Assembly (NCBI GenBank): GCA_033439265.1
Contig: JAVTVX010000034.1
Coordinates: 19,110,501 to 19,174,500 of the forward strand
DNA from: Dillenia suffruticosa
Taxonomy: Eukaryota; Streptophyta; Magnoliopsida; Dilleniales; Dilleniaceae
DNA: 64,000 nt
Reading direction: 5' to 3'
Below, piece by piece: positions 28,431-64,000 of this stretch. Within the stretch, counting starts at the first letter, position 1. The number at the start of each line of letters is the position of its first letter. The translations under genes and the position numbers were made by a program. The notes beneath the pieces were generated by a model. It did no database searches. It saw only the letters and a list, made by a program, of their open reading frames with translations, and was not told where the DNA came from.

Positions 28431-28732
28431 GTTTTGTAACGATACCTTTGTGAATGCTTAGTTCATATTATATGCCTATACTTATATTTATTTGTATACC
28501 TTATATCCTTTTTGTTGATGATAAAAAGTAAGATAAAATTATGAAAGGGGGAGAGAATGAAATTAGAAAAGTATTACATTGATTAAAGGGGAGTTATGTC
28601 TGAAACCGTCTAAATATTTCACTTAATGCTTTGTCATTATCAAAAAAGGCGAGTTTGTTGGGAAAAATTTATTTTGATGATAAGAAAAACTAGGTTAGAT
28701 GATAAGTAAAAGTAGAACAAATAGATGAAAGA
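28431..28732 (+). repeat. Copia-2 3' tail, polypurine tract and LTR stub: array founder segment
   Basis: From TGTGGCATAAATGCTAAG the sequence matches the downstream flank of every tRNA copy in the array: TATGCCTATACTTATATTTA, TTGATGATAAAAAG, GGGGAGTTATGTCTGAAACC. The polypurine tract AAAAAAGGCGAG follows, then TGTTGGGAAAAATTTATTTT (LTR start). LTR similarity stops after ~75 bases (GATGAAAG), where tRNA flank begins. Here this segment is still attached to copia integrase, which shows where the array monomer came from. Confidence 0.75.
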
Positions 28733-28872
28733 ATAATTCTCACAAGATTATATACGTGATATAGACAACATAACCATAATTGATTCCTAACCATAAAGCT
28801 TTTTTTATAGAGTAATAATCAACTCTGCTCTCTTGACACTCCTTTTCACTTATGCTATGGAGGAGATACAAG

Positions 28873-28944
28873 CATTTGTAATCCAACGGTTAGGATAATT
28901 GTCTTCCAAGCAATAGATCTGGGTTTGACTCCCGGCAAACGTAA
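28873..28944 (+). pseudogene. tRNA-Gly(UCC) copy 1, type A, decayed
   Basis: GCATTTGTAATCCAACGGTT with UCC anticodon. Acceptor and D-stem changes (GCATTTG, AATCC) and a T-loop GTTTGAC weaken folding and the B box. It is probably inactive. Confidence 0.75.
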
Positions 28945-29426
28945 AAAAAATTATATGTTTGTGGAATAAATGTTAAGTTTACTAATATTACCAATGTGAA
29001 TGTTTAGTTCATACTACATCCCTATGCCTACCCTCTTAGTTGATGATAAAAAAGTGGAGAAGATTTATGAAAGGAGGAGAGAAAGAAATTAGAAAAGTAT
29101 TCTATAGATTAAGGGGTAGTTACGCTTGAAACCATCTAAGTATAGACTAAGGGAAAGAAGATTTAGAAATCATTCATTTAATGTTTTGTCATTATCAAAA
29201 AGGGGGAGACTATTAGAAAAACAAATTTTGCAAATAAGCAAAACTATGTTAAATGATGAGTAAAAGTAGGATAAATTGATAAAATATTAATTCTCACAAG
29301 ATTATTTACATGATATAGAAAACATAACCATCCTCAATTCCCAAAGGTAAATCTTTCTTCGTAGATTAAAAATCAATTCTTCTCTTTTGACACTCTTTCA
29401 CACTTTATGTTATCGAATAGACACAA

Positions 29427-29498
29427 GCATTTTAAGTCCAACAGTTAGGATAATTGCCTTCCAATCAATAGACCCGAGTTCGACTCCCATCAAACGCA
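29427..29498 (+). pseudogene. tRNA-Gly(UCC) copy 2, type B, decayed
   Basis: GCATTTTAAGTCCAACAGTT with UCC kept. The 3' anticodon stem reads TCAAT, the T stem is weakened (CCGAG / CCCAT) and acceptor pairs are lost. Confidence 0.8.
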
Positions 29499-29996
29499 CA
29501 AAAAATTATGGGTTTGTGGCACAGAGGCTAAGTTTTCTAACGTTACTTATATGAATATTTTGTTCATATTATATGCCTATGCTTATATTTATTTGCATAC
29601 CTTATAACCTCTTTATTGATGATAAAAAGTGAGGAAGATTTATCAAAGGGGGAGAGAATGAAATTAGAAAAGTATTTCATAGATTAAAGGGGAGTTATGT
29701 CTGAAACCATCTAAGTATTTCACTTAATGTTTTATAATTATCAAAATGGAGGAGGTTTTTGAAAAAAAATATATTTTGATGATGAAAAAAATATATTTTG
29801 ATGATAAGAAAAACTAGATTAGATCATAAGTAAAAGTAGGATATATAGATGGAAGAATAATTCTCATAAGATTATATACATGATATAGACGACATAACCA
29901 TCCTTGAGTTCCAAGGATAAAGCTTTTTTGATAGAGTAAAAATCAATTCTTCTCTCTTAACACTCTTTTTCACGTTGTGTTATGTAGGAGATACAA

Positions 29997-30068
29997 GCGT
30001 TTGTAGTCCAACGGTTAGGATAATTGCCTTCCAAGCAATAGATCCGGGTTCGACTCCCGGCAAACGCA
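29997..30068 (+). tRNA. tRNA-Gly(UCC) copy 3, type A, intact fold
   Basis: A 72-base cloverleaf: acceptor GCGTTTG/CAAACGC (7 bp), D arm GTCC-AACGGTTA-GGAT, anticodon arm ATTGC-CTTCCAA-GCAAT with UCC, variable AGAT, T arm CCGGG-TTCGACT-CCCGG, discriminator A. The B box GGTTCGACTCC fits the Pol III consensus. CAA directly precedes the gene, as is common in plants. No run of four Ts occurs in the next ~100 bases, so termination looks poor. Confidence 0.9.
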
Positions 30069-30573
30069 AAAAACAATTATGTGTTTGTGGTATAAATATT
30101 AAGTTTACTAACATTACCAATGTGAATGTTTAGTTGATATTATATGCCTATGCCTATGTTTTTGAATATACCTTATACCCTCTTTGTTGATGATAAAAAA
30201 TGGGAGAAGATTTATGAAAGGGAGAGAGAAAAAAATTAAAAAAGTAATGTCTAGATTGAGAGGGAGTTATGCTTGAAACCACCTAAGCATAGACTCTGGG
30301 AAAGAAAATTTAGAAAATTTTCATTTAATGTTTTGTCATTATCGAAAAGGGGGAGATTGTTAGAAAAATATTTTTTGCTAATAAGCAAAACTAGATTAAA
30401 TGATGAGTAAAAGTAGGGTAAATTGATAAAATATTAATTCCCACAAGATTATATACGTGATATAGAAGACATAACCGTCCTGAATTCCCAAGGGTAAATC
30501 TTTCTTCGTAGTGTAAAAATCAATTCTTCTCTCTTGACACTCTTTTACACTTTATGTTTTCGAGTAGACACAG

Positions 30574-30645
30574 GCATTTGTAATCCAATGATTAGGATAA
30601 TTGCCTTCCAAACAATAGACTCGTGTTCGTCTCCCAGCAAACGAA
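30574..30645 (+). pseudogene. tRNA-Gly(UCC) copy 4, type B, decayed
   Basis: GCATTTGTAATCCAATGATT keeps UCC, but the 3' anticodon stem is ACAAT, the B box is altered (GTGTTCGTCTCC) and the acceptor end reads CAAACGA. Confidence 0.8.
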
Positions 30646-31121
30646 CAAAAAATTATGGGTTTGTGGCATAAAGGCTAAGTTTTCTAACATTACTTATGTG
30701 AATGTTTTTTTTCATATTATATGCCTATACTTATATTTATTTGTGTACTGTATAACACCTTTGTTGAAGATAAAAAGTGAGAGAAGATTTTTGAAAGTGG
30801 AAGAGAATGAAATTAGAAAATTATTACATAGATTAAAGGGGAGTTATGTCTGAAACCGTCTAAGTATTTCAATTAATGTTTTGTCATTATCAAAAAGGGA
30901 GATGTTGTTGAAAAAATATATTTTGATGATAAGAACAATTTGGCTAGATCATAAGCAAAAGTTGGATAAATAGATGAAAGAATAATTCTCACAAGATTAT
31001 ATACATGATATAGACCACATAACCATCCTTGATTCCCAACGATAAATCTTTCTTCGTAGAGTAAAAATCAATTCTTCTCCCTTGACACGCTTTTCCACTT
31101 TGTGTTATGGAGGAGATAAAA

Positions 31122-31193
31122 GTGTTTGTAGTCCAACGGTTGGGATAATTGCTTTCCAAGCAATAGATCCGGGTTTGACTCCTGGCAAACGCA
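31122..31193 (+). pseudogene. tRNA-Gly(UCC) copy 5, type A, near-intact
   Basis: Most stems pair and UCC is kept (loop TTTCCAA). The acceptor has one mismatch (GTGTTTG), the D loop reads ACGGTTGG, and the T arm is GTTTGACTCCT. Possibly still foldable, but its B box is weakened. Confidence 0.6.
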
Positions 31194-31698
31194 AAGAAGA
31201 ATTATGTGTTTGTGGAATAATGGTTAAGTTTACTAATATTACCTATGTGAATGTTTAGTTCATAATATATGCCTATACCTATGTTTATGAATATACCTTA
31301 TACCCTTTTAGTTGATGATAAAAAAGTGTAGAAGATTTATGAAAGGGGGAGAGAAAGAAATTAGAAAAGTATAATATAGATTAAGGGGGAGTCATGCTTG
31401 AAACCATCTATGTATAGACTAAGGGAAATAAGGTTTAGAAGGCATTCATTTAATGTTTTGTCATTATCAAAAAGAGGAAGACTGTTAGAAAAACAAATTT
31501 TGCTAATAAGCAAGACAAGGTTAAATGATGAGGAAAAGTAGGATAAATTAATGAAATATTAATTCTCACAAGATTATATACATGATATAGAAAACATAAC
31601 CATCCTCAATTTCCAAAGGTAAATCTTTCTTCGTGGAGTAAAAATCAATTCTTCTCTTTTGACACTCTTTTCCCCTTTATGTTATCGAGTAGACACCA

Positions 31699-31771
31699 GT
31701 ATTTGTAGTTCAACGGTTAGGATAATTGCTTTCCAAGTAATAGACCCAGGATCGACTCTCGAGAAAATGTA
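31699..31771 (+). pseudogene. tRNA-Gly(UCC) copy 6, type B, decayed
   Basis: GTATTTGTAGTTCAACGGTT with UCC kept. The T arm (CCAGGATCGACTCTC) and acceptor (GAAAATGT) no longer pair. Confidence 0.8.
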
Positions 31772-32241
31772 CAAAAAATTATGGGTTTGTGGCATAGAGG
31801 CTAAGTTTTCTAACCTTACCTATGTGAATGTTTTGTTCATATCATAAGCCTATGCTTATATTTATTTACATACCTTATAACCTCTTTGTTGATGATAAAA
31901 AGTGAGAGAAGATTTATGAAAGGGGGAGAAAATGAAATTAGAAAAGTTTTGCATAGATTAAAGGGGAGTTATATCTAAAACCGTCTAAGTATTTCACTTA
32001 ATGTTTAATAAAAAAGGGGGAGGTTGTTGGAAAAAATATATTTTGATGATAAGAAAAATTATGTCAGATCATAAGTAAAAACAAGATAAATAGATGGAAG
32101 AATAATTCTCACAAGATTATATACATGATATAGACAACATAACCATCATTGTTTCCCAACGATAAAGCTTTCTTCGTAGAGTAAAAATCAATTGTTCTTT
32201 CTTGACACTCTTTTCCACGTTGTGTTATGGAGGAGATACAG

Positions 32242-32313
32242 GCGTTTGTAATCCAATGGTTAGGATAATTGCCTTTCATGCAATAGATCAAGATTCGACT
32301 CTCGGCAAACGCA
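32242..32313 (+). pseudogene. tRNA-Gly-derived copy 7, type A, anticodon changed
   Basis: The acceptor pairs perfectly (GCGTTTG/CAAACGC), but the anticodon loop reads CTTTCAT, giving UUC in place of UCC. The T stem is disrupted (CAAGATTCGACTCTCGG). The changed anticodon looks like decay, not a new tRNA-Glu. Confidence 0.75.
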
Positions 32314-32800
32314 AAAAATAATTATGTGTTTGTGGAAAAAAGGTTAAGTTTACTAACAATACCAATGTGAATGTTTAGTTTATATTATATGCCTATGCCT
32401 ATGTTTATGAATATACCTTATATCCTCTTTGTTGATAATAAAAAAATGGGAGAAGATTTATGAAAGGGAGAGAGAAAGAAATCAAAAAAGTATTGTATAG
32501 ATTCAGGTGGAGTTATACTTGAAACCATCAAAGTATAGACTAAGGGAAAGAAAATTTAGAAAATTTTCATTTAATGTTTTGTCATAATCAAAAAGGTTAA
32601 GACTATGAGGAAAATATATTTTGCTAACAAGCAAAACTAGGTAACTAGGTTAAATGATGAGTAAAAGTAGGGTAAATTGATGAAACATTAACTCTCACAA
32701 GATTATATACATGACATAGAAGACATAACCATCTTGAATTCCCAAGCGCAAATCTTTGTTCGTAAAGTAAATATCAATTCTTCTCTCTTTACACACATTT

Positions 32801-32805
32801 TCACT
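32801..32805. other. Athila-1 target-site duplication, left
   Basis: TCACT here and CCACT at 59211-59215 flank the element. One base differs. Other array copies read TTTTCCACTTTATG at this place, so CCACT is the original. Confidence 0.6.
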
Positions 32806-34217
32806 TGGTGTGTCGTCAAACAATCAAAAATAAAATTACCTACTTCACTAAAGATGAGTTTAGGGTGAACAGAGTCGAATCCACAGGGAATGGTGGGGGT
32901 ATCTCTTTTAATAAAAATAAAATAAAAATATGAGGGGTTTTTGGTAAAATTATCTAAAATAACAAAGTTAATAAATCAATGAAAATTAATCAAAATAAAA
33001 TAACTAGATAACACCAATTAAAAGAAAAGATGTCAATTAAGGTAAAACCTAGCCAAAGAAGTTATTTCCACCTTGATACATTTGATTAATCATTGATGCA
33101 AAAATTACTCGATATTATGTGAATAAATTGGTTATAACCGTTAAGTACCACGAAACGACCAATCTCTCCTTAATTTTTCTATAATCAAGATACCATCGTT
33201 AATTACTTCCCTAATCAAAAGACAACCCAAGAGACCCTCATTGGATTTAATGTTTTGACAGCATTAAGATCTAGAAAGACCCAATTCTAATCAGTAAATT
33301 TCAATCTGGATTTATTTAAGTTAGATTAGCTAATCTCTTGACATAAATCTTACCGCTTGCGAGGCCATAAAACTATATCAATTATCACTCTATTAAAAAT
33401 ATACAAATCTTGCTGTTTTAAAATGGTTGTAAACTATTCTAAGGTTATTAAATATAGCGCTCTATTTAATAATTCTAAAACAATCATAAACATTCAGCAT
33501 AGAGATTAAATAAGTACCCACATTTATCAAGCAAATAAGATCATTTAGATCTCACAATCATCATTCATTAAGATTTCAATAATTCTTTGACTAGAAAAGA
33601 AACTAGAATGAACTCATAATAAAAGAAAATTCACAATAAATTTTTATTGCTTCCAAGGAATAAAGAATGACAAGCAAAAACTCCTTTCCTGGCTACAGCC
33701 TTGTGTGCTTTCCTGGGTATCTCTCAAAGTCAAAGAGAACAAAGCTCATATACCTATTCTAGTGGGACCCAGCTGCAACCCTAAAGGAGAGGTAAAATCC
33801 TCCTATTTTTACCATAGTAAAATTATTCCAAGTATTTTCTAAAATATTTTCTAAAACTGATTGAAATATCTTAATGAATAAAATCCTAAAAACTTCAAAT
33901 AAAAGAAAATTCTAAATAAAATGTGACATTTACAACTTTCCAAAACTTCACATTCCTAAATATTAGGAATGAAGAAAAGAGTCTTCAAAATTTTTGTATT
34001 TCTCCTTGAATTCAACGTGCCCATATGCTAATGAAAAGTCACTTATTTCTGTTATTCCATCCTTGCATAATTGCTCCAATTAAGCCTATTTTTCTTCATA
34101 TTTTTTCATGTCTTTCTTCTGACTAATCTAACACATCAATCACCACAATTAGTGTAATATTTTCTCAAAATAATACAAAAATCAATTACAAATACTACAC
34201 TTATTTTGATCCTATCA
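32806..34217 (-). repeat. Athila-1 3' LTR
   Basis: On the plus strand it starts TGGTGTGTCGTCAAACAATC and ends TTTTGATCCTATCA, matching 57798-59210 along its full length. Ends are TG..CA. A purine tract (minus strand GTGTGGGGGAATT) abuts its inner edge. Confidence 0.9.
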
Positions 34218-35831
34218 AATTCCCCCACACCTAGATGATGGTTGTCCTCAAGCATTCCAACTCATCTAAAACTAAAACTAACAACCTATTTTTCTTCCAA
34301 GTCCCCAAGTCAATAATCACCATTAAAAAGTTAAGCTGAAAGCATAATCGAAACAGAAAGTACTTCACAGTGTTCCGTACTAAAACAATCACTACATGTC
34401 TTAACAGCTCCTTATGAAATCCAAACAACGAGATCCGACAATTCTCTCCAAAGGGAAATCACTCAAATGCACTCAAATGGGTAAAAAAAATATATATCAT
34501 TCAAATCAAAAACATGGCATGCTATTACTATATATTTGCAAATATATCAAATTTCTGCCACTTTGAATTTTGAATTTTATGCATCAATCTAAAGGTCTTT
34601 CATTTGGTTGTAACGTGGTTAGGGTTAGGGGTAAGATAAAAGGGAATATCAAGGGTAAAATGTACCAAAGAGAATATGCAACTAATCACACGATTATTTT
34701 TACGATAACACATTTGCCCCGCACAAGTAGTACACCAAAAATTCATACTCTTGTCACCCACATGTGCTCAACATAGCCAACATTCCAAATCACATAAAAA
34801 ATTGTCAACCATTTTCTCTACAATCCATGATTGAAATGAAATTCTCAAAAATGCAGCAATTTTTTTTTACTATTGTTTTTTATTTTCTTTTTTCTTCTTT
34901 CTTTGTTTTTTTTTTCAAAGAACATTTCAATACAAAGAGGAACAAAAGAAAACTTTTCTTTTCCTTTTTCATATGTAGCAAATATCATCATCAAAGCTCT
35001 AATCGATACATATTTCGTGAGACAATCATATGACTAATATCGTGCAATTAACTACATATATCCTTGGTACAAGGGTTGAAACGCCAGCCAAAATAGGGTT
35101 ACAGAGTTGTATTGAATGGTTTTGAAGAAAGAAAGGGTCTCTGGTTCACTAAGGGGATTGTAAATCAAGGTAGAGATTTTTACAAAAGCCAAAATGTAGG
35201 TGTCTTTATAATTTTAATACATGAAACCTTGGATGTGATCTTGAAATGCATAACATTGCAAGTTCTAGAATAACCACTCCAAGTGTGATATTCACTCAAG
35301 AAGAAAAGAAACTCCGGGCGAAAAGAATGAATTCGCTCGTTTTAGGCTCAAAACCTTACTATTTAAGTAGGATTTGTGTCAAATCTATCATGTTCATCAT
35401 TCAAAGAAAACTATTAAAGATATGTGCAGCCATCTCAAGCACAAAAACACCATTGATACAAGTCATTTTTCATACATGTCCAGCCACCCAAATAACATAC
35501 ATTAACAAAGGGAACTTAGATTTTATTTTTTATGGAAACAGAACTCAACAATTTCACATGAACGAAACGCCTATAAAGAATGTTCCTATGTATGATCCTA
35601 AAAGAATGGCTAACCTCCTCCACACCTAAACCGTACATTGTCCCCAATGTATGCCTAAGTGAAGAAAGATCAAAAGAAAACAAGAAAACATGCAAAAATG
35701 AAGAAACAAACAAAAAAGCAAGATAGAACAATACTCCCCTAGGGTGGAGATAGAAACGAAGGACGAAAGCCAACGAACTCGAAATATGCCATAAGGTTGT
35801 TTTCCATGCGAGACAAACGTTCGTGGAGAGA
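34218..35831 (-). other. Athila-1 polypurine tract and 3' non-coding region
   Basis: The tract GTGTGGGGGAATT (minus strand, 34218-34230) abuts the LTR. Beyond it lies AT-rich non-coding sequence with a T-run (34860-34920). Part of it (35254-35640) resembles 42810-43170 of Athila-2, including a C(A)CATTGTCC(C/T)CAATGTA phrase. Small frames here are not conserved between the two elements. Confidence 0.6.
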
Positions 35832-36959
35832 CTAAAGTGTTGGTATGGGAGTGGGGACTACAGAGGGAAGAAGGACGGCCTCAGGGATGGGAGAACCTGC
35901 GCGAGGACGAGAAAATTGCTTCAGGCGTGCACCCGGGGGGTTAAAAGTGTAATGCCCACGTGAAACCGATAAAACACCCATACGTACTAAACAATCTAAA
36001 TCCAACAGTTCTATGGGGCATGCTTCATGTAAATCATGAGTAGTCAAGTCCAACACGCCCAAATTCACCGCCAAAAGGGAAATGAGGGAGCCTAAAATTA
36101 ATGGTCGCCTTGGTTTGTTCACACAAGACAGGAATTGAGAGACTAACCAATATCCGAAATTAACCTATTGGTTGGTGTGTGTGCATGCACCATAGAAAAA
36201 AAAGTTCAGGTTTAGTACAAATGGTTGAGTTATCCTTGCGGCCGGAGAAACTAAAGGCAAGGACCCTATGAATGAGTCGCAATGCATTATCCTTCAAATA
36301 ACTACCCTTAGAATGACTAGGGTGTGGTAAGGAACAGGATCTACAGCCATCTTAGACCAGATGCGCATATATGTAGAGTTAAATTGGGAAGGAAATCACA
36401 TAAACTAGTCTGATATGCAGAGAACTGTGTTTGATCCTCACTGAGGAACCCTAAGCCAACGTTAAATTTAGTCAAGAAGAGATTAAATGAGTGATTCATC
36501 AAGCGAAATTGAATTAAGTTAGGGGTGTAGGCAGTGAAATCCGTAGGTGTATGAAAGTGAAAAGTGGTGTAAAATTCATAAGTTAACTCAAGCAATGCAG
36601 GGTAAGTGCAATTCAAGTATTGTTCCCAGCCAATAGCAAAAAGATATCAGGCAATGGAGTCATGCATATTCAGTACTTGCAACGATGCAAAATGAAAAGA
36701 TTTACATGGAATGATAGGTCGAACAGAAATAGCAGAGTACCTTTATATGCAGCAGGGGGAGGACAAACTTCCCTTTCGCCACCCGGGAGTGAACGCGAGG
36801 CCTTTTTGGATGGGAAGAGGAGGGGTCGGGTGCTGTAGCAAGGACAGGGGTGGATTGAGTCAGAGAGGGGTCAATAGGAGATGAATCGGTGGGATGAGGG
36901 CTAGGGTTTGGGCAAGAGGGTAAATGGGGATTAGGGTTTGGACAGGGGGTTGCGACCAC
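35832..36959 (-). pseudogene. Athila-1 env-like (ATHILA ORF1) region
   Basis: The frame at 36341-36616 reads CTYPALLELTYEFYTTFHF and LIQFRLMNHSFNLFLTKFN, parallel to Athila-2 FKELTCEFYTTFWF and LIEFRLMNRAYHFSLTQFN. This is the plant Athila ORF downstream of pol, often called env-like (PF03078-type); membrane or fusion functions are not shown. 35832-36122 resembles the Athila-2 frame at 43389-43604. Broken. Confidence 0.75.
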
Positions 36960-37373
36960 TCGAAAAGGACGAGGAGGGAGGTCTGTGCTGGCCCGTCGGT
37001 GGACTAGGGGTTGAATGTGGACAGGATCAAGAGGTGGAGGCCGGCGGGTTTACGGGAGTCGATGAAGGCGATTCACCGCTATCAGAGGAGAGAGAGATGC
37101 GAGATGCGCCCTGACTTTCGATCCCTTGGGCTAATGTGGTAGGGGGCTAGAGTAGCAGCGGTGGGGGTGTATCTGTTTCTTGTCCATCGGTGGCGGTAAT
37201 GGAGGAGGAAGCAGCCGAGGAAGATGAAATTGGTCGGTGACGGTGACTGCGAAGGCAAAAGGAAGATGAAAACCATAGAAACCAAAGTTCGAAAGGTTAG
37301 AACAGAACAATTGGATTTTGTTTCCTCTTTTCCACCTTTCTTTTTGGAAAAGGTAGAAGTGGTTTAAATTTAA

Positions 37374-37690
37374 GGCGTGGGCACACCTTAAATGAAGTGT
37401 GTCTCTATCTGTCGAACGTTCTCATGGGTAAACATGAATGGGTGTTGGGGCGTGGGCACGCCTTATCGTGTAAGTACGTTTGCCTATATAAGTGATTTGG
37501 ATAGGTGTGAAGAGAGGATAAGGTGTGGGCACGCCGTAAATGAAAAGTATGTCTATCCGTGTAAATAAGTTGGGCAGATGTGAGTAAGAGATAGGGCGTG
37601 GGCATGCCCTGCCGTGAGTGCTAAGCTTAAATATAGCAGACATGGAATGCTGTTAAGGCGTGGGCATGCCCTAACGTGCGACCGCTTCTG
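37374..37690. repeat. GGCGTGGGCACGCC minisatellite in the Athila-1 pol-env spacer
   Basis: Five phrases of the form GGCGTGGGCACGCCTTA occur near 37374, 37449, 37526, 37590 and 37655, spaced 65-80 bases. The core is close to palindromic (GGCGTG..CACGCC). Frames on the minus strand translate the repeat as HARPRP-type text and are not supported as genes. Confidence 0.7.
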
Positions 37691-38028
37691 AATTTTTTTT
37701 AAAAAAATCACTCCTAAATCAAGTTTAAAGAAGGGAAAATAAAGAACAAAATAAAAAAAGAAAATAAATAAAAACAAAATAGGACTATTGGGTTGCTTCC
37801 CAATGAGCGCCTGTGTTTATCGTCTTTAACTCGACATTGTCTTTTCGTCTTACTCCTCCTTGTATGTTGGATGTGCCAATTGAGCTTCCTCCACTGTAGA
37901 GATATCAAATCCGTCAATAAATGGTTTCAATCGTTGTCCATTCACCTTAAAAGTGTTGTTAGTCTTTATATATTTTCAATTTCAATAGCACCATGAGGAG
38001 AGATACTTACTACCGAATATAGTCCTGT

Positions 38029-38994: not shown

Positions 38995-38999
38995 ACATC

Positions 39000-40614: not shown

Positions 40615-40617
40615 CTT

Positions 40618-47220: not shown

Positions 47221-47247
47221 GATCTCAAAAGGTAAATTCCAATCAGG

Positions 47248-50832: not shown

Positions 50833-50894
50833 AAAATAAAAGAGGTCAACAAAACGAATAATAAAGATAACACAACTAAGAAATCAAAATAGTT

Positions 50895-50911
50895 CCCCGG
50901 CAACGGCGCCA
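50895..50911 (-). other. Athila-2 primer-binding site (tRNA-Asp)
   Basis: The minus strand TGGCGCCGTTGCCGGGG is exactly complementary to the 3' end of plant tRNA-Asp, the usual Athila primer. It sits six bases inside the LTR end. Confidence 0.9.
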
Positions 50912-50917
50912 AAATTT

Positions 50918-52309: not shown

Positions 52310-52776
52310 TCATCCATGTCAATGATATAAAAATCAATCGAAAAAATCAATTCATTCACCTTGACTAAGACATCTTCAACAATTCCTGCAGGATATGATG
52401 TGGACCTATCAGCTAATTGTATGATCACATTAGTCTTCTTCAAAGGTTCTAAATTCAAGTACCTAAAAACAGTTAAACGCATAAATTGATTGATGCTCCA
52501 AGGTCAAGCATTGCCTTCTCTATTCTTCTGACCCCTATGATGATTGGTATGGTGAACATACCCGGATCCTTACACTTAGGAGGCAATTTTCTTTGGATGA
52601 TGGCCGAAACATTCTCATTAACGCAAATCTTATCGCTGCCCCCAAGCTTTGTCTTCCTAGTGCATAGTTCTTTGAGAAATTTTGCATACCTTGGCACTTG
52701 TCAGATCGCATCCAAGAGTGGGATGTTGATTTCCACCTTTCGAAAAGTCTCTAAGAAGATTTCCTTCTCCTCATTT
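52310..52776 (-). pseudogene. Athila-1 protease N-terminal part
   Basis: PGMFTIPIIIGVRRIEKAML, DLGASIN and NVIIQLADRSTSYPAGIVED read on the minus strand, the same region as Athila-2 49100-48900. It is interrupted on one side by Athila-2 and on the other by the solo LTR. Confidence 0.85.
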
Positions 52777-55700: not shown

Positions 55701-56687
55701 AAGAGAATGGAGGGAGTTTACCTTATGAACTGTAGGTTGATTGAAGCCTTCGAAGGACAAGTTTTGCTCCTCCCCTTCAATTTTCGGCCCCTCCTATATC
55801 TCCAATGTAGAGTGCTCCTTTTCAGCTGGTTTTGGATATGTTGTAATAGACTTAGAGTAGAGAAAAATCATGTAAAAACATTGAGTAGTTGTTTGGAGAA
55901 AATCACTTCTCCACCTAGGTCTAGGTTTCGGCCAAGAGAAGAGAGGAGAAGAAGATTTTTTTTGTGCTCAAGCCTTTCACATTTCTTTCTCCCTCTCTCC
56001 CACGTTGGCCTCTCTCTAATGTGTTGCCTTTCACAATTCTAAAGGGGCAATCCATGGTTAAGTAAATTTCAAATCATAGTTAGGTTTAATTAATCTAACT
56101 CTAGTTAAATTTAACCATTTTTAATTAACTAGGGTTAGTTTCCTCCAATTATGTAGTTCATTTGTCAAGACCACACAAAATCCAATAAAGTAAATTCACA
56201 CACTTCAAGAGCATTAATTGCTATCCTTTATGCCTATCCACTCCTTAACACGCGATCCGAGTTTGGTTAAAGTTATTATTTACCTTGAAAATCTAAAATT
56301 ACATACTGGACCCAGGTTTTCATACTGATTCCAATGCCGTTGCTTTCGTGTTAATCTGAGGTCGTTTGATAGCCCAAACGTTCTTCGAAGTAAACGAAAT
56401 TCTCAATCGGTCAAAATTTGACCTCGACCTCGAAATGCGTGAAATCTTACTACGAACTACGTTTTACACATGGATTTCAAAAATATAGGTCTTAGCTGGA
56501 AACGAGACCGTTTGCTCGGACAAATTTCAATTCTGCTAAAAATTAGGGTTTCTTAGGCGAAAATTTTAAAGTACCGAGCATTTTTGCGCTACGGCTTAAA
56601 TTTCACTTTCGTCATGAAAACATGATCAATATTATATATACATCGAGAAGAGTACAATATGAAAGATACCAAAGTGTCGGTGTTACA
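52777..56687 (-). mobile_element. Solo LTR of a long-LTR gypsy element, 3.9 kb
   Basis: On the minus strand it begins TGTAACACCGACAC and ends GGGGCGTGACA, the TGTAACACC..CGTGACA ends typical of Del/Tekay-type LTRs. Flanks are CATTT (52772-52776) and CATTC (56688-56692), a near-perfect 5-bp target duplication. Athila-1 protein text continues across it. No coding domains are inside, and no second LTR or internal region is visible. It is probably the product of LTR-LTR recombination. It is related in style, not closely in sequence, to the Gypsy-1 LTR. Confidence 0.85.
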
Positions 56688-57775
56688 CATTCTCTTTCTT
56701 CAATCTTGCTAACCTGCCAGGAAAAAGAGGTGGAATTATATTTTTAGTCTTAGAAGTATCGGTTTCTTTACCTACCTTTGTGGCTGATTCATTCAATATT
56801 GATGCTTTGTTTTGTTTGGCCTCTTTTTATCTTCTTTAGTTGTTGATGAGTTGTCCTGCACTTTCCTTCCATTCTTGACTGCTATAATACTCACGTTTTC
56901 TCTCTGGTTGATCTCTACTTGAGAGGGTAGTTTCCCATTATTTTTCTCCTTTCGACTCATGGTCGTTGCCAACTACGACACTTGATTTTCCAAGTTTTGG
57001 ATGTCGGTTCTTGTCTCTAGCTGAAATCATTGATTGCTGCTAGCCATTCTTTTAGGTTCATACATAGGAACATTCTTTATAGGCATTTTGTTCTTTGAAA
57101 TTGTTGAGTGCTTTTAGCCAAACTTTTAAAAATCTCTTCTAGAGACATATCTTGATTTGAAGAGGGTTGATGTGGTTGAAATTGTGGTCGAGGTTGGTGT
57201 TGAAACCCTTGTTGTCGATTTCCATAACTGAAATTTGGGTGATCCCTCCATCCTGGGTTGTAAGTGTTTGAATAGGGATTTTCGTTGTGGTTGTTTTGGA
57301 AATCCCCCCGCTGCATTGATTTGTTCGTTTGAATCTTCTCGAAGGGTAGGACACAAATCCGTAGGATGACCAAAATCAGAACAAACTCCACATGCCTTGA
57401 TCTGTTGTGTTTGTCCTACAATAAAATTATGCATAAGAGAAGTTAGTTCTTTCAATTCTTGACCAATGGAAAAATTACTTACCTCGTTGAACCTCTTTGG
57501 AACTTCTTGCCTTATTCCAAATTATTGGGCATTGGCTGCCATGTTTGAGATCAAATTTCTCGCTTTATCGGGTGTCTTGTTCACCAATGCTCCTCCACTC
57601 GCAGCATCGATCATGTTCCATTCCATTAGGGATAAACCTCCACTCGCAACAATTGTTTCGGGCTGTTTTCTCATCTCTAGGTCAAACACAAGTTCACCTG
57701 TATGAGCAAAACGAGGTATATACCCAAAAAAAATGAAAGTAAAATTTTAAAAGAAATAAATTTATTAACACAGTT
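56688..57775 (-). pseudogene. Athila-1 gag region
   Basis: Minus-strand text MIDAASGGALVNKTPDKARN (near 57610), CGVCSDFGHPTDLCPTLRED (57340-57400), and AAGGFPKQPQ correspond to Athila-2 gag MVDAASGGALVKKTPEEARQ and CSILGHPMDMCPSLQED. Part of the gag-protease linker lies near 56700-57000. Broken and incomplete. Confidence 0.85.
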
Positions 57776-57792
57776 CCCCGGCAACGGTGCCA
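57776..57792 (-). other. Athila-1 primer-binding site (tRNA-Asp)
   Basis: The minus strand TGGCACCGTTGCCGGGG differs by one base from the tRNA-Asp complement seen in Athila-2. Confidence 0.85.
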
Positions 57793-57797
57793 AAATT

Positions 57798-59210
57798 TGG
57801 TGTGTCGTCAAATAACCAAAAATAAAATTATCTATTTCACTAAAAATGAGTCTAGGGTGAGCAGAGTTGAATACATGGGGAACGGTGGATATCTCTTTTA
57901 ATAAAAACAAAAATAAAAATATGGGGGTTTTTGGTAAAATTATCAAAAATAACCAAGTAAATAAATCAAAGAAAATTAACCAAAGTAAAATAACTAGATA
58001 ACACCAATTAAAAGAAATAATGTCAATTAAGGCAAAACCTAGCCAAAGGAGTTATTTCCACCTTGATATATTTGATTGATCATCGATGCAAAAATTACTC
58101 GATATTATGCGAATAAATTAGTTATAGCCGCTAAGTATCACGAAACGACTAATCTTTCCTTACTTCTTCGGTAATCAAGATACCATCGTTAATTACTTCC
58201 CTAATCGAAAGACAGCCCAAGAGACCCTCGTTAGATTTAATGTCCCGACAGCATTAAGATCTAGAGAGACTCAATTATAATCAGTAAATTCAAATCTGGA
58301 TTTATTTAAATTAGATTATCTAATCTCTTGACATAAATCTTACTGCTTGCAAGGCCATAAAGCTATGTCAATTACCACTCTATTAAAAACATACAAACCT
58401 TGTTGTTTTTAAATAGTTGTAGACTATTCTAGGGTTATTAAACATAGTGCTCTATTTAACAATTCCAAAACAATCATAAACATTTAACATGGAGATTAAA
58501 TAGGTATCCACATATATCAAGCAAATAAGATCATTCAGATCTCACAATCATCATTCATCAAGGTTTCAATAATACTTTGACTATAAAAGAAATTAGAATG
58601 AACTCATAATAAAAGAAAAATCACAATAAATTTTTATTGCTTACAAGGAATAAAGAATGACAAGCAAAAACTCCTTTCCCAGCTGCAGCCTTATGTGCTT
58701 TCCTGGGTGTCCCTCAAAGTCAAGAGAACAAAGCTTATATACCTATTCTAGTGGGAGCCGGTTGCAACCCTAAAGGAGAGGTAAAATCATCCTATTTTTA
58801 CCCTAGTAAAATTATTCCAAATATTTTCTAAAACATTTTCTAAAACTGAATGAAATATCCTAAGGAATAAAATCCTAAAAACTTCAAATAAAAGAAAATT
58901 CTGAATAAAATATTTTTGACATTTACAACTTCCCAAAACTTCACATTCCTAAATATTAGGAATGAAAAAAAGAATCTTCAAAAGTCTTGTATTTCTCTTT
59001 GAATTCAGCGTGCCCACATGCTAATGAAAAGTTATTTTTGTCTATTCTTTCATCCTTACATAATTGCTCCATTTAAGCCTCTTTTTCTTTATATTTATCC
59101 ACGTCTTTCCTCTGACTAATCTAGCACATCAATCACCACAATTAGTGTAATATTTTCTCAAAATAATAGAAAAATCAATTACAAATACTACACTTATTTT
59201 GTTCCTATCA
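57798..59210 (-). repeat. Athila-1 5' LTR
   Basis: It is collinear with 32806-34217 and ends TATCA against CCACT of the array. Scattered substitutions separate the two copies along their length. Confidence 0.9.
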
Positions 59211-59215
59211 CCACT
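59211..59215. other. Athila-1 target-site duplication, right
   Basis: CCACT, matching TCACT at 32801-32805 except for one base. Confidence 0.6.
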
Positions 59216-59237
59216 TTATGTTTTTGAGTAGACACAA

Positions 59238-59309
59238 GCGTTTGTAGTCCAACGGTTAGGATAATTGCCTTCCAAGCAATAGACCTGGGTTCGACTTCCG
59301 GCAAACGCA
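59238..59309 (+). tRNA. tRNA-Gly(UCC) copy 8, type B, near-intact
   Basis: Acceptor, D and anticodon stems are perfect, with UCC. The T stem is CTGGG/TCCGG with two G-U-type pairs, and the B box is GGTTCGACTTC. The gene starts 27 bases after the end of Athila-1, so most of its natural 5' flank is now Athila LTR. Confidence 0.7.
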
Positions 59310-59784
59310 CAAAAAATTATGGGTTTGGGGCATAGAGGCTAAGTTTTCTAACATTACCTATGTGAAGTTTTGTTCATATTATATGCCTATGCTTATATTT
59401 ATTTGTATATTGTATAACCTCTTTGTTGATGATAAAAAGATAGAGAAGATTTTTGAAAGGGGGAGAGAATGAAATTAAAAAATTATTGCATATATTAAAG
59501 GGGTGTTATGTCCAAAACTATTTAAGTATTTAACTTAATGTTTTGTCATTATTAAAAATGGGGAGATTGTTGAAAAAAATATATTTTGATGATAAGAAAA
59601 ACTAGATTAGATCATAAGTAAAAGTAGGATAAATAGATGGAAGAATAATTCTCATAAGATTATATACATGATATAGACGACATAACAATTCTTGTTTCTT
59701 ACCGATAAAGCTTTCTTCGTAGAGTAAAAATCAATTCTTCTCTCTTGACACTCTTTTCCACATTGTGTTAGAGAGGAGATACAA

Positions 59785-59856
59785 GTGTTTATAGTCCAAC
59801 GCTTAGGATAATTGCCTTCCGAGCAATAGATCCGAGTTCGACTCCCAACAAATGTA
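59785..59856 (+). pseudogene. tRNA-Gly(UCC) copy 9, type A, decayed
   Basis: GTGTTTATAGTCCAACGCTT, anticodon arm TTGCCTTCCGAGCAA, T arm CCGAGTTCGACTCCCAA. Acceptor and T stem are weakened. Confidence 0.75.
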
Positions 59857-60350
59857 AAAAAAAAATGTATTTGTGGAATAAATGTTAAGTTTACTAATAT
59901 TACCCACATGAATGTTTGGTTTATATTATATGCGTATACCATTGTTTATGAATATACCGTATACCCTCTTAGTTGATGATAAAAAAAGGGGAGAAGTATA
60001 TGAAAGAAGAAAAGAAAGAAATAAGAAAAGTAATCTACAGATTAAGGGGAAGTTATGCTTTAAGCCATCTAAGTATAGACTAAGGGAAAGAAAATTTAGA
60101 AATCTTTCAAGTAATATTTTTGTCATTATCAAAAAAGGATGAGACTATTAGGAAAATATATTTGCTAAAAAGCAAAACTAGGTTAAATGATGAGTAAAAT
60201 TGATGATATAATAATTCTCACGAGATTATATAGAAGAAATGGAAGACATAACCATCCAGAATTCCCACGGGTAAATCTTTCTTCGTAGAGTAAAAATCAA
60301 TTCTTCTCTCTTGACACTCTTTTACACTTTATGTTTTCAAGTAGACAGAA

Positions 60351-60422
60351 GCGTTTGTAGTCCAACGGTTAGGATAATTGCCTTCCAAGCAATAGACCCG
60401 GGTTCGACTCCCGGCAAACGCA
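60351..60422 (+). tRNA. tRNA-Gly(UCC) copy 10, type B, intact fold
   Basis: All four stems pair perfectly; UCC anticodon, variable AGAC, T arm CCGGG-TTCGACT-CCCGG, discriminator A. The first TTTT lies ~40 bases downstream (AAGTTTTCTAAC), which is distant for a Pol III terminator. Confidence 0.9.
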
Positions 60423-60897
60423 CAAAAAATTATGGGTTTGCGACATAAAGGCTAAGTTTTCTAACATAACCTATGTGAATGTTTTGTTCATATAATATAC
60501 CAATGCTTATATTTATTTGTATACTGTATAACCTCTTTGTTGATGATAACAAGTGAGAGAAGATTTTTGAAAGGGAGAGAGAATGAAATTAGAAAATTAT
60601 TGTATAAATTAAAGGGGAGTTATGTCTGAAACCGTCTAAGTATTTAACTTAATGTTTTGTCATTATCAAAAAGAGGGAGGTTGTTGGAAAAAAATATTTT
60701 GATGATAAGAAAAACGAGGCTAGATCATAAGTAAAAGCAGAATAAATAGATACAAGAATAATTCTCACAAGATTATATACATGATATAGATGACATAACC
60801 ATCCTTCTCTCCCACTGATAAACCTTTCTTCGTAGAGTAAAAATCTATTCTTCTCTCTTGACACTCTTTTCCACGTTGTGTTATGGATGAGATACAA

Positions 60898-60969
60898 ACG
60901 TTTGTAGTCCAACGGTTAGGGTAATTGCCTTTCAAGCAATAGATCCGTGTTCGACGCCCGACAAACACA
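60898..60969 (+). pseudogene. tRNA-Gly-derived copy 11, type A, anticodon changed
   Basis: ACGTTTGTAGTCCAACGGTT; loop CTTTCAA gives UUC. The T arm is CCGTGTTCGACGCCCG and the acceptor end CAAACAC. Decayed. Confidence 0.75.
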
Positions 60970-61423
60970 AAAAACAATTACGTGTTTGTGGAAAAAAGGT
61001 TAAGTTTACTAACATTACCAATATGAATGTTTGGTTCATATTATATGCCTATGCCTATGTTTAAGAATATACCTTATACCTTATTTGTTGATTATAAAAA
61101 GGGGGAGAAGATTTATTAAAGGGAGAGAGAGAAAATAAAAAAGTATTGTATAGATTCAAGGGAGTTATGCTTGAAGCCATCAAGCCATCTAAGTATAGAC
61201 TAAGCGAAAGAAAATTTAGAAATCTTTCATTTAAGCAAAACTAGGTTAAATGATGAGTAAAAATAGGGTAAATTTATGAAATATTAATTCTCACAAGATT
61301 ATATACATGAAATGGAAGACATAACATTCCTGAATTCCCAAGGGTAAATCATTCTTCGTAGAGTAAAAATCAATTCTTCTCTGTTAACACTCTTTTCTAC
61401 TTTATGTTTTGGAGTAGACACAA

Positions 61424-61495
61424 GCGTTTGTAGTCCAACGATTAGGATAATTGCCTTCCAAGCAATAGACCCGGGTTCGACTCTCGGCAAACGCA
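61424..61495 (+). tRNA. tRNA-Gly(UCC) copy 12, type B, near-intact
   Basis: The acceptor is perfect and UCC kept. The D loop reads AACGATTA. One G-U pair occurs in the T stem (CCGGG/CTCGG), with B box GGTTCGACTCT. It is the first tRNA of the 1.43-kb higher-order repeat. Confidence 0.75.
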
Positions 61496-61969
61496 CATAA
61501 AATTATGAATTTGTGTCATAAAGGCTAAGTTTTCTAATATTACCGATGTGAATGATTTGTTCATATTATATGCCTATACTTATATTTATTTGTATATTGT
61601 ATAACCTCTTTGTTGATGATAAAAAGAAAGAAAGGATTTGTGGAAGGGGGAGAATGAAATTAGAAAATTGTTGCATAGATTAAGGGGGAGTTATATCTGA
61701 AACCGTCTAAATATTTCACTTAATGTTTTGTCATTATCAAAAAGGGAGAGGTTGTTGGAAAAAAATATATTTTGACCATAAGAAAAATTAGGTTAGATCA
61801 TAAGTTAAAGAAAGAAAAATAGATGGAAGATAATTCTCACAAGATTATATACATGATATAGACGGTATAACCATCCATGTTTCCCAACGATAAAGCTTTC
61901 TTCGAAGAGAAAAAATCAATTCTTCTCTCTTGGCACCCTTTTCCAAGTTGTGTTATGGAGGAGATACAA

Positions 61970-62041
61970 GCGTTTGTAGTCCAACGGTTAGGATAATTGC
62001 CTTCCAAGCAATAGATCCGGGTTCGACTCCCGGCAAACGCA
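61970..62041 (+). tRNA. tRNA-Gly(UCC) copy 13, type A, intact fold
   Basis: A perfect cloverleaf identical in stems to copy 3 (GCGTTTG/CAAACGC, CCGGG/CCCGG, UCC). Preceded by CAA. No TTTT nearby downstream. Confidence 0.9.
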
Positions 62042-62280
62042 AAAAATAATTATGTGCTTGTCGAAAAAATGTTAAGTTTATTAACAGTACCAACGTGAAT
62101 GTTTAGTTCATATTATATGTCTATGCCTATGTTTATGAATATACGTTATATGCTCTTTGTTGATGATAAAAAAGGTGGAGAAGATTTATGAAAGGGAGAG
62201 AGAAATAAATTAAAAAAAGTATTGTATAGATTCAAGCGGAGTTATGCTCGAAGCCATCTAAGTATAGACTAAGGGAAAGA

Positions 62281-62352
62281 AAATTTGTAGTCCAACGCTT
62301 AGGACAATTGCCTTCCAAGCAATAGATCCGGGTTTGACTCCCGACAAACGGA
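62281..62352 (+). pseudogene. tRNA-Gly(UCC) copy 14, 5'-truncated at a fusion
   Basis: From TTTGTAGTCC onward it is tRNA, but the preceding bases are copia-tail sequence (GGGAAAGAAAATTTG). The 5' acceptor strand (AAATTTG) only partly pairs with CAAACGG. The T loop is GTTTGACTCCC. A short monomer lost its LTR stub and 5' flank at a short shared TTT. Confidence 0.85.
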
Positions 62353-62854
62353 AAAAAAATTATGTATTTGTGGAATAAATGTTAAGTTTACTAATATTAC
62401 CCACATGAATGTTTAGTTCATATTATATGCCTATACCTTTGTTTATGAATATACCTTATACCCTCTTAGCTAATAATAAAAAAGGGGAGAAGTATAAGAA
62501 AGGAGGGGAGAAAGAAATAAGAAAAGTAATCTATAGATTAAGGGGAAGTTACGCTTCAAGCCATCTAAGTATATACTAAGGGAAAAAAGATATAGAATCA
62601 TACATTTAACGTTTTGTCATTTTCAAAAAGGAAGAGACTGTTTGAAAAATATATTTTGCTAATAAGCCAAACTTGGTTAAATGGTGAGTAAATGTAGGGC
62701 AAATTGATGAAATATTAATTCTCACAAGATTATATACATGATATAGAACACATAACCATCCTGAATTCCAAAGGGTAAATCATTCTTCATAGAGTAAAAA
62801 TCAATTCTTCTGTCTTGACACTCTTTTTCACTTTATGTTTTTGAGTAGACACAA

Positions 62855-62926
62855 GCGTTTGTAGTCCAACGGTTAGGATAATTGCCTTCCAAGCAATAGA
62901 CCCGGGTTCGACTCCCGGCAAACGCA
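62855..62926 (+). tRNA. tRNA-Gly(UCC) copy 15, type B, intact fold
   Basis: Perfect stems, UCC anticodon, variable AGAC, B box GGTTCGACTCC. It is the counterpart of copy 12 but without its changes. Confidence 0.9.
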
Positions 62927-63401
62927 CATAAAATTATGAATTTGTGTCATAAAGGCTAAGTTTTCTAATATTACCGATGTGAATGATTTGTTCATATTAT
63001 ATGCCTATACTTATATTTATTTGTATATTGTATAACCTCTTTGTTGATGATAAAAAGAAAGAAAGGATTTTTGGAAGGGGGGAGAATGAAATTAGAAAAT
63101 TGTTGCATAGATTAAGGGGGAGTTATATCTGAAACCGTCTAAATATTTCACTTAATGTTTTGTCATTATCAAAAAGGGAGAGGTTGTTGGAAAAAAATAT
63201 ATTTTGACCATAAGAAAAATTAGGTTAGATCATATGTTAAAGAAAGAAAAATAGATGGAAGATAATTCTCACAAGATTATATACATGATATAGACGGTAT
63301 AACCATCCATGTTTCCCAACGATAAAGCTTTCTTCGAAGAGAAAAAATCAATTCTTCTCTCTTGGCACCCTTTTCCAAGCTGTGTTATGGAGGAGATACA
63401 A

Positions 63402-63473
63402 GCGTTTGTAGTCCAACGGTTAGGATAATTGTCTTCCAAGCAATAGATCCGGGTTCGACTCCCGGCAAACGCA
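63402..63473 (+). tRNA. tRNA-Gly(UCC) copy 16, type A, near-intact
   Basis: All stems pair, with one G-U in the anticodon stem (ATTGT/GCAAT). UCC and B box are intact. Confidence 0.8.
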
Positions 63474-63712
63474 AAAAATAATTATGTGCTTGTCGAAAAA
63501 ATGTTAAGTTTATTAACAGTACCAACGTGAATGTTTAGTTCATATTATATGCCTATGCCTATGTTTATGAATATACGTTATATGCTCTTTGTTGATGATA
63601 AAAAAGGTGGAGAAGATTTATGAAAGGGAGAGAGAAATAAATTAAAAAAAGTATTGTATAGATTCAAGCGGAGTTATGCTCGAAGCCATCTAAGTATAGA
63701 CTAAGGGAAAGA

Positions 63713-63784
63713 AAATTTGTAGTCCAACGCTTAGGACAATTGCCTTCCAAGCAATAGATCCGGGTTTGACTCCCGACAAACGGA
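63713..63784 (+). pseudogene. tRNA-Gly(UCC) copy 17 (last), 5'-truncated fusion
   Basis: Same fused 5' end (AAATTTGTAGTCC) and same base changes as copy 14, 1432 bases away. The truncation therefore predates the higher-order duplication. Confidence 0.85.
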
Positions 63785-64000
63785 AAAAAAATTATGTATT
63801 TGTGGAATAAATGTTAAGTTTACTAATATTACCCACATGAATGTTTAGTTCATATTATATGCCTATACCTTTGTTTATGAATATACCTTATACCCTCTTA
63901 GCTGATAATAAAAAAGGGGAGAAGTATAAGAAAGGAGGGGAGAAAGAAATAAGAAAAGTAATCTATAGATTAAGGGGAAGTTACGCTTCAAGCCATCTAA

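What the first reader, a model, noticed from the sequence alone, without database searches (positions are those of the whole stretch)
28431..64000. Chimeric satellite: tRNA-Gly(UCC) genes fused to the 3' end of a copia retrotransposon and tandemly amplified
Seen: 18 tRNA-Gly copies on one strand, mostly 526-577 bp apart. Each is followed by the Copia-2 3' tail, a polypurine tract and ~75 bases of LTR start, then a ~140-bp tRNA 5' flank. The founder junction is visible at 28431-28732, where the same tail is still attached to copia integrase. Known: plant genomes hold tandem tRNA clusters (for example Pro and Tyr-Ser in Arabidopsis), but I know of none whose monomer is part retrotransposon end, part tRNA gene. 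Inference: a tRNA locus and a truncated copia 3' end fused and then spread by unequal exchange. Four copies fold perfectly and three nearly so, so the array may supply tRNA-Gly(UCC) or tRNA fragments.
Basis: partly seen in the sequence, partly recalled or inferred. Interest (0 to 1): 0.88.

Follow-up and report, generated by a model that had tools for sequence, protein, structure and literature searches.

The report
tRNA-Gly satellite with copia-derived spacer
In this plant chromosome a glycine tRNA gene was joined to the tail end of a dead jumping gene and the joined piece was copied in tandem dozens of times; many copies have decayed, but others still spell a perfect tRNA, and the same genome carries other tRNA arrays with different spacers.

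Summary
The array is real. The window holds 17 array copies of tRNA-Gly(UCC) (not 18) plus a stray at 13.7 kb, in alternating A/B monomers (526-577 bp), split by a younger 26.4-kb gypsy insertion. The spacer includes a copia 3' UTR, polypurine tract and about 82 bases of LTR: four dispersed loci show these parts in this order. The stray has flank, tRNA and trailer without copia, and its homology stops at both chimeric junctions. So a tRNA locus fused to a copia 3' end and the unit was amplified. The 'founder junction' is not supported: that edge unit groups with A monomers. Past the window the array is compact for 24 kb more, with four scattered decayed copies beyond: 63 copies, 27 perfect, 24 of these in 13 copies of a 1,432-bp three-tRNA repeat. 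Perfect copies of the window differ at 0-1 of 72 tRNA bases but at 5-18 of 60 in adjacent flanks, so some look constrained or locally converted. The genome also has Gly(UCC) arrays with three other spacer classes, and Ile(UAU) and Cys clusters. A new variant of a known kind (plant tDNA clusters; transposon-derived satellites). Expression untested.

The parts
28414..32806 (+). Left part of the array: partial A-type unit (28414-28871) then 7 tRNA units (B A B A B A B)
59212..64000 (+). Right part of the array: 10 tRNA units (A B A B A B' B A B' B), continuing past the window: compact to about C34:19,198,687, scattered decayed copies to about 19,216,700
60351..60422 (+). Perfect tRNA-Gly(UCC), A type (C at base 47 of the gene)
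29997..30068 (+). Perfect tRNA-Gly(UCC), B type (T at base 47 of the gene)
61970..62041 (+). Perfect tRNA-Gly(UCC), B' type, in a truncated 311-bp unit that is part of the 1,432-bp higher-order repeat
62855..62926 (+). Perfect tRNA-Gly(UCC), A type, part of the 1,432-bp higher-order repeat
60443..60679 (+). Example monomer: copia 3' UTR tail ending in polypurine tract (60668-60679); left end uncertain by 10-20 bases
   Evidence: homologous to stretches upstream of the LTR in L013-L016
60682..60763 (+). Example monomer: first ~82 bases of copia LTR (TGTTGG...), leaving the LTR at a shared TAATT
   Evidence: same LTR start at 14526 and in L013-L016
60764..60897 (+). Example monomer: ~134-bp tRNA 5' flank (no copia homology recognised)
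   Evidence: shared with the stray copy at 13534
13534..13768 (+). Stray copy of flank + decayed tRNA + trailer without copia; outside the A and B clades of the tree
14526..16350 (+). LTR of a related copia element (LTR start without the tRNA flank); right end and initiator-tRNA-type primer-binding site read by eye, motif recalled
27342..28420 (+). Decayed copia gag-pre-integrase/integrase fragment joined to the array edge at TGTGGCAT
32807..59211 (-). Gypsy insertion splitting the array; LTRs 32805-34217 and 57797-59210 (K2P 0.097); target duplication CACTT at 32802-32806 and 59212-59216
41174..52554 (-). Younger gypsy nested inside that insertion (LTR pair 96.4% identical); its ORFs match Retrotrans_gag, RVT_1, rve and ATHILA

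Best explanation
A tRNA-Gly(UCC) locus (~134-bp 5' flank, tRNA, ~20-bp trailer) was joined, probably by microhomology-mediated repair, to a truncated copia 3' end (3' UTR, PPT, ~82 bp of LTR). The fused ~550-bp unit duplicated, the copies diverged into A and B, and the A-B dimer and later a 1,432-bp A-B'-B trimer were amplified, presumably by unequal exchange. The dimer array predates a gypsy insertion 3.7-7 million years old (recalled rates); the trimer expansion is recent. Most older tRNA copies decayed, with many cytosine-type transitions as expected of methylated repeats, while a subset stayed perfect and was carried through, most simply because those copies worked at least part of the time. 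Shown: anatomy, parents, relative order of events, 27 perfect of 63 array copies. Inferred: repair mechanism, unequal exchange, methylation, function. The confidence is for origin and amplification; I give the functional clause about 0.55.
For: A/B tandem structure. 3' UTR-PPT-LTR order in L013-L016, with copia pol matched upstream of it in two of the four (L013, L016). The stray's homology ends at both junctions: right extension P 0.57 (A) and 0.76 (B), left P 1.0; the inside controls were reached by 0 of 300 shuffles; it lies outside the A (98/96) and B (86/89) clades. Insertion with TSD CACTT. Trimers: 11 copies (62855-77175) differ pairwise by 0-3 substitutions over ~1,432 bp. tRNA differences per copy are overdispersed (13 copies, chi2 41.2, p 4.6e-5), flanks are not (14 copies, p 0.12). 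The four perfect copies of the window: 0-1 of 72 differences in the tRNA, 5-13 of 60 upstream and 8-18 of 60 downstream. Consensus A vs B: 2 of 72 in the tRNA, 61 of 474 elsewhere. G>A plus C>T are 234 of 620 changes.
Against: Averaged over copies the tRNA is no more conserved than the rest within a type (A 0.121, B 0.149 against 0.076-0.142), so constraint can apply only to a subset. Short gene conversion from dispersed perfect genes (4 of 14 fetched loci are identical to the A type) could keep copies perfect; T47 kept in B copies argues only against full-length conversion. B units have no T4 before +91. Copies share ancestry, so the p values are too small. The LTR of 14526 shows a weak continuation into the flank (P 0.023). 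The B clade is not strongly supported and the tree is midpoint-rooted. The trailer/copia joint is uncertain by 10-20 bases.
Confidence: 0.82

Rival explanations
1. A tandem array of a TRIM-type retrotransposon with a tRNA inside its LTR (Helenus/TRIMp3, the tRNA counterpart of Cassandra), formed by LTR-LTR recombination.
For: PPT followed by an LTR start is present; unit size (~550 bp) and tandem habit resemble Cassandra arrays (PMC7215508) and Helenus lengths (PMC10886601).
Against: The LTR is cut after ~82 bp, whereas LTR homology to 14526 runs on for more than 1 kb in L013-L016. No LTR 3' end and no primer-binding site recognised after the tRNA (by eye). No target duplications per unit seen by eye. 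The tail query matched only the C34 array (42 of 42 matches; capped search). The stray copy starts inside the would-be LTR, not at its end.
Confidence: 0.07
2. The integrase-attached unit at 28414 is the founder: an internally deleted copia next to a tRNA gene gave rise to the whole array in place.
For: Same strand and superfamily; the tail is a copia 3' end; the array begins exactly there.
Against: The edge unit sits on the A side of the A/B split (30 of 35 diagnostic sites A-like, 3 B-like, 2 neither; distances). No copia protein match passes 28420. In L016 pol ends 2.1 kb upstream of the tail. The joint lies in a short word shared by both sides.
Confidence: 0.08
3. The same origin, but a purely neutral satellite: perfect tRNAs are kept only by recent amplification and by gene conversion from dispersed identical genes, with no function.
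For: 24 of the 27 perfect copies lie in the 13 trimers; 4 of 14 dispersed loci fetched are identical to the A type; most older copies are decayed.
Against: The four perfect copies of the window sit in flanks as diverged as those of decayed copies, with no reduced divergence next to the tRNA; B copies keep T47. The fifth lineage (86476) was compared only without gaps (0 of 72 in the tRNA, 6 and 11 of 60 downstream against two A copies).
Confidence: 0.35
4. Assembly artefact: the tandem order or the near-identical trimers were created in assembly.
For: 11 trimers differ by only 0-3 substitutions in ~1,432 bp; reads were not available.
Against: Monomers outside the trimers differ by about 12-15% within a type and about 21% between types, several deletions are copy-specific, and a gypsy insertion with a target duplication sits inside.
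Confidence: 0.04

Closest known systems
Plant nuclear tDNA clusters: Arabidopsis Pro and Tyr-Ser (SYY), maize Ile (PMC11700998, PMC12308677)
   Same: Tandem same-isotype tRNA genes, mixture of major intact copies and pseudogenes, core expanded by tandem duplication.
   Different: Spacer here is a copia 3' end; isotype Gly(UCC); A/B dimers and 1,432-bp trimers. No Gly cluster is named in section 3.4 of PMC11700998 (read); its density rule (3 per kb) would largely miss spacings near 550 bp.
Arabidopsis chromosome 5 tRNA-Cys cluster with Helitron sequence (PMC10701932, abstract and discussion read)
   Same: Tandem ~0.4-kb units in which a tRNA gene lies in transposon-annotated DNA; pseudogene at one edge; the authors suggest an array of short elements with a captured tRNA.
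   Different: Helitron, 4-6 units, Cys; here a copia 3' end, 63 copies, higher-order repeats.
Cassandra TRIM tandem arrays (PMC7215508, abstract and discussion read)
   Same: Tandem arrays pairing a Pol III gene with retrotransposon sequence.
   Different: 5S RNA inside the LTRs of a mobile element; here a tRNA beside a truncated LTR, no sign of mobility.
Helenus / TRIMp3 (PMC10886601, abstract, results part 1, discussion read)
   Same: tRNA sequence together with PPT and LTR sequence.
   Different: Helenus has tRNA-like sequence inside two full LTRs, a PBS, target duplications and dispersal; looked for here and not found.
Retrotransposon-derived satellites (PMC7004042, abstract read; satellites from retrotransposon 3' UTRs recalled)
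   Same: Satellite monomer taken from part of an LTR retrotransposon.
   Different: Those start from short tandem repeats inside the element; here a fusion with a tRNA gene was amplified.

Membership tests
Plant tandem tDNA cluster | Three or more genes of one isotype in tandem on one strand | tested here: met
   17 in the window, 63 in the extended array
[quoted passage not shown]
   Met only where the truncated pseudogene is counted (61970-62926 holds three); ordinary spacing is 526-577
Plant tandem tDNA cluster | Transcriptionally silent or tissue-restricted, methylated | not testable with these tools
   Only an indirect sign: excess C>T and G>A
Retrotransposon-derived satellite | Monomer homologous to part of a dispersed LTR retrotransposon | tested here: met
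   3' UTR-PPT-LTR start in L013-L016, four of the nine copia-only places listed
Helenus / TRIMp3 | tRNA-like sequence inside both complete LTRs | tested here: not met
   LTR homology ends after ~82 bp; the tRNA lies in a flank without recognised LTR homology
Helenus / TRIMp3 | Primer-binding site after the LTR | tested here: not met
   None recognised by eye after the tRNA; copia 3' UTR homology (L013) begins within 10-20 bases of the trailer
Helenus / TRIMp3 | Polypurine tract before the LTR | tested here: met
   AAAAAGGGGGAG in the monomer consensus, before TGTTGG or variants
Helenus / TRIMp3 | Dispersed copies with 4-5 bp target duplications | tested here: not met
   Tail query: 42 of 42 matches in the C34 array (40 of 107 candidates scored); unit query: no copia-plus-tRNA match outside C34:19.1 Mb among 112 (38 of 62 scored). 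Capped searches.
Cassandra | 5S rRNA in the LTR | tested here: not met
   All 14 Rfam matches in the window are tRNA
tRNA-derived SINE | Dispersed retroposons with A-rich or simple tail and target duplications | tested here: not met
   Tandem, no such tail, perfect tRNAs; no target duplication seen by eye around the stray copy

The most novel reading that the evidence does not exclude
In this genome tRNA genes themselves seed satellites: Gly(UCC) sits in arrays of four spacer classes (C34:19.1 Mb; C34:2.75 Mb; C10:14.65 Mb; and C10:0.59 and 31.3 Mb, whose spacers are related to each other), and Ile(UAU) and Cys(GCA) genes are clustered too. Whatever sequence comes to lie beside such a gene, here a copia end, is amplified with it, for instance because Pol III genes stall forks and provoke unequal exchange, while selection or conversion renews a few perfect copies in most arrays.
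Probability: 0.3. Interest if true: 0.78.

Novelty: new variant of a known kind. Interest (0 to 1): 0.52.

Why it matters
Plant tDNA clusters are usually explained by tandem duplication and their function is open. Here a retrotransposon fusion and a datable gypsy insertion give an order of events, and tRNAs that stay identical while the bases next to them diverge make it directly testable which clustered copies are kept by selection. Different spacers around the same tRNA in one genome also make it testable whether tRNA genes start satellites.

Tried and rejected
Rejected: (1) integrase joint as founder. (2) TRIM/Helenus: a PBS-like reading of TGGCATAGAGG was considered and dropped (needs several changes; the copia relative L013 shows 3' UTR close by). 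(3) SINE. (4) tRNA copied from the reverse-transcription primer: orientation is wrong (sense), dropped by reasoning. (5) Copia targeted upstream of a tRNA gene as in yeast Ty1 (PMC5911963, passages read): no LTR terminus or target duplication at the joint; the words plant and Arabidopsis do not occur in that paper's main text. (6) My own idea that the T5-A68 acceptor pair is array-specific: wrong, 8 of 14 fetched dispersed loci carry it with at most one other difference; L028 has C5-G68.

The flank-only genome search did not complete. Paper searches with few or no useful hits. The species was not identified (named relatives of the gypsy gag among the 120 of 1,896 listed are flowering plants, mostly eudicots, apart from one record filed under Candidatus Burkholderia). 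One search holds one hand-entered count that was off by one (30574: 9 for 10); one search replaces it. One search ended with a script error after the tree had printed.


Full report
OBSERVATION. The window (C34:19110501-19174500 of a 596-Mb assembly in 37 contigs) holds a tandem array on the + strand. Seventeen tRNA-Gly(UCC)-like copies lie between 28872 and 63785 and one stray at 13676. ARAGORN reports 12 tRNAs in the window, two of them called Glu, and Rfam 14 above gathering; all are array copies. Two monomer types alternate: A (543-570 bp) and B (526-577 bp when complete), giving ~1,125-bp dimers. Near the window end a B unit is truncated to 311 bp and the order becomes A, B', B. Thirteen of 17 units have all parts.

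INTERRUPTION. The array is split at 32806/59212 by a minus-strand gypsy insertion with target duplication CACTT and LTRs differing by K2P 0.097 (94 transitions, 33 transversions in 1,409 sites; 3.7 to 7.0 My with the recalled rates 1.3e-8 and 7e-9). Inside it sits a younger element whose LTRs are 96.4% identical over 1,608 sites and whose ORFs match Retrotrans_gag, RVT_1, rve and ATHILA.

PARENTS. Copia side: one search listed nine places outside C34 with copia-part matches only; four were fetched (L013-L016). In all four the array's tail homology runs into LTR sequence related to the LTR at 14526. Copia proteins match upstream of the tail in two of the four: L013 (1850-2504, tail from 4509) and L016 (177-2271, tail from 4399, LTR 4614-6616); L014 and L015 gave no protein match, so there the assignment rests on the LTR. 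The alignment shows 3' UTR, PPT and ~82 bases of LTR, with the array leaving the LTR at a shared TAATT. tRNA side: the stray copy carries the 5' flank, a decayed tRNA and the trailer. Extension tests find no homology beyond it (right P 0.57 against A and 0.76 against B; left P 1.0; 300 single-base shuffles each), while inside it 0 of 300 shuffles reach the observed score. A tree of 16 rows puts it outside the A (98/96) and B (86/89) clades (midpoint-rooted; the units 62281 and 63713 left out). Slightly against a clean LTR joint: the LTR of 14526 extends into the flank with P 0.023, which the shared TAATT explains in part.

THE 'FOUNDER'. The first unit is attached to a copia integrase remnant. 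One search found 35 copia relatives; none of their matches passes 28420, the start of the array unit being 28414. In the 26 of 35 relatives where the HVxFDE motif was picked out, it is followed by a variable, often acidic linker that is not seen here. The attached unit is A-like at 30 of 35 diagnostic sites, B-like at 3 and neither at 2; F-A is 0.145, F-B 0.214, A-B 0.215. So it split off after A and B had separated, that is after the fusion, unless it was later converted by A units. The word TGTGGCAT spans the joint; its integrase side is inferred from the protein motif.

EXTENT. Adding 50 kb downstream gives 64 tRNA hits, 63 of them beyond the stray. The compact array ends at about 88,187 of the joined stretch (24 kb past the window, with a gap at 81.2-85.4 kb); four decayed copies are scattered to 106,174. 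Positions 61424-80038 hold 13 copies of a 1,432-bp trimer: 11 (62855-77175) differ pairwise by 0-3 substitutions, the one at 61424 by 10-12 from these, the one at 78607 by 26-28 where it meets older units. Allowing C or T at base 47, 27 of the 64 are perfect, all in the array: 24 in trimers, and 29997, 60351, 86476.

CONSTRAINT. Within types the tRNA is on average as diverged as the rest (A 0.121, B 0.149; other segments 0.076-0.142). But the spread is bimodal: differences per copy are 6, 8, 0, 10, 5, 11, 8, 9, 0, 7, 0, 0, 2 for 13 copies (15 aligned, two near-duplicates 61424 and 63402 dropped; 62281 and 63713, which lack the tRNA 5' end, not aligned); chi2 41.2, p 4.6e-5. Flank differences are not overdispersed (14 copies, p 0.12). 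The six pairs of the four perfect copies differ at 0-1 of 72 tRNA positions, 5-13 of 60 bases upstream and 8-18 of 60 downstream. Flanks of five well-kept copies are about as diverged as those of nine others (0.066 and 0.071). This fits purifying selection on a subset, or very short conversion. B copies keep T47 while the four dispersed perfect genes fetched have C47, so full-length conversion from those is unlikely; some copies of another array also have T47. Transitions at CG and CHG sites run at 0.115-0.141 and at CHH sites 0.062-0.078, against 0.015-0.022 at A/T sites, as expected of methylated repeats (inference). CAA just upstream is present in 10 of 17 copies. All 7 A copies have T4 at +35 or +36, past the trailer; no B copy has one before +91. 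Simple RNA folding gives the cloverleaf as minimum for two of seven copies tried (60351, 61424); the perfect B copy 29997 folds otherwise there although it scores 72.9 bits with Rfam.

GENOME CONTEXT. Other Gly(UCC) arrays in fetched stretches: C10:0.59 Mb (34 copies, 2 perfect), C10:31.3 Mb (26, 1), C10:14.65 Mb (18, 0), C34:2.75-2.77 Mb (two stretches: 8 and 10 copies, 1 and 5 perfect). With tRNAs masked, spacers match between the two C10 arrays at 0.59 and 31.3 Mb, within the C34:2.75 Mb locus, and in one 332-bp 67% match between C10:31.3 Mb and the C34:19.1 Mb stretch (E 2e-12), which I did not follow up. The copia tail gives no convincing match in them (best E 0.007, in L019). Fourteen further places (L019, L020-L032): 4 identical to the A-type tRNA, 4 differing by one base, 6 by more. 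The Rfam search scored only 63 of 49,706 candidates and lists none of the Gly arrays; five small stretches fetched from its clusters hold Ile(UAU) (two) and Cys(GCA) (three, one with a Tyr call). Arrays of tRNA genes are thus repeated in this genome, and the window's array is the one seen with a copia-derived spacer.

LITERATURE. Read: PMC7215508 (abstract, discussion), PMC11700998 (abstract, section 3.4, passages), PMC10701932 (abstract, discussion), PMC12308677 (abstract, one results section), PMC7004042 (abstract), PMC10886601 (abstract, results part 1, discussion), PMC5911963 (passages). No paper describing a copia/tRNA-Gly chimeric array was seen in the listings; most subscription journals are not held. 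The tRNA-Cys/Helitron array and Helenus are the nearest precedents found, so the kind is known and this is a variant.

VERDICT. Real, misread at its edge, larger than the window shows. Interest moderate: partly dated, with a testable signal of kept copies, and pointing to a wider habit of tRNA satellites in this genome.

Noticed in passing
L007-L012, L017, L018 (C10:0.586-0.600, 31.305-31.330, 14.650-14.655 Mb; C34:2.750-2.772 Mb): Other tRNA-Gly(UCC) tandem arrays whose spacers are mostly unrelated to the window's array.
   Followed up: partly
L033 (C1:4326500-4330100), L034 (C13:16709900-16713000): Tandem tRNA-Ile(UAU) arrays; on C1 an 819-bp unit repeated at about 99% identity.
   Followed up: partly
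L035 (C11), L036 (C2), L037 (C8): Small tRNA-Cys(GCA) clusters, one with a Tyr call.
   Followed up: no
61970-62284 and 63402-63716: Truncated B units joined to the next tRNA inside its first bases, giving a tRNA with a replaced 5' end; carried along in the trimers.
   Followed up: yes
17112-19209 and 24989-27343: A ~2-kb repeat pair (about 82-83% identical) in which the copia proteins tried found essentially no match, lying beside copia fragments.
   Followed up: no
15505-16432 and 19281-20214: Two copies (93%) of a copia LTR end with primer-binding region; the second looks like a second 5' end, not a 3' LTR (read by eye).
   Followed up: partly
789-2414: Tandem ~223-bp repeat rich in TTGTTACCA, about five copies.
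   Followed up: no
12980-13290: Palindromic stretch rich in TTAGCGACGGA/TCCGTCGCTAA-like words, possibly a DNA-transposon end (read by eye).
   Followed up: no
C10:31.3 Mb (L009-L011) against the C34:19.1 Mb stretch: One 332-bp, 67% match between masked stretches of two otherwise unrelated arrays.
   Followed up: no
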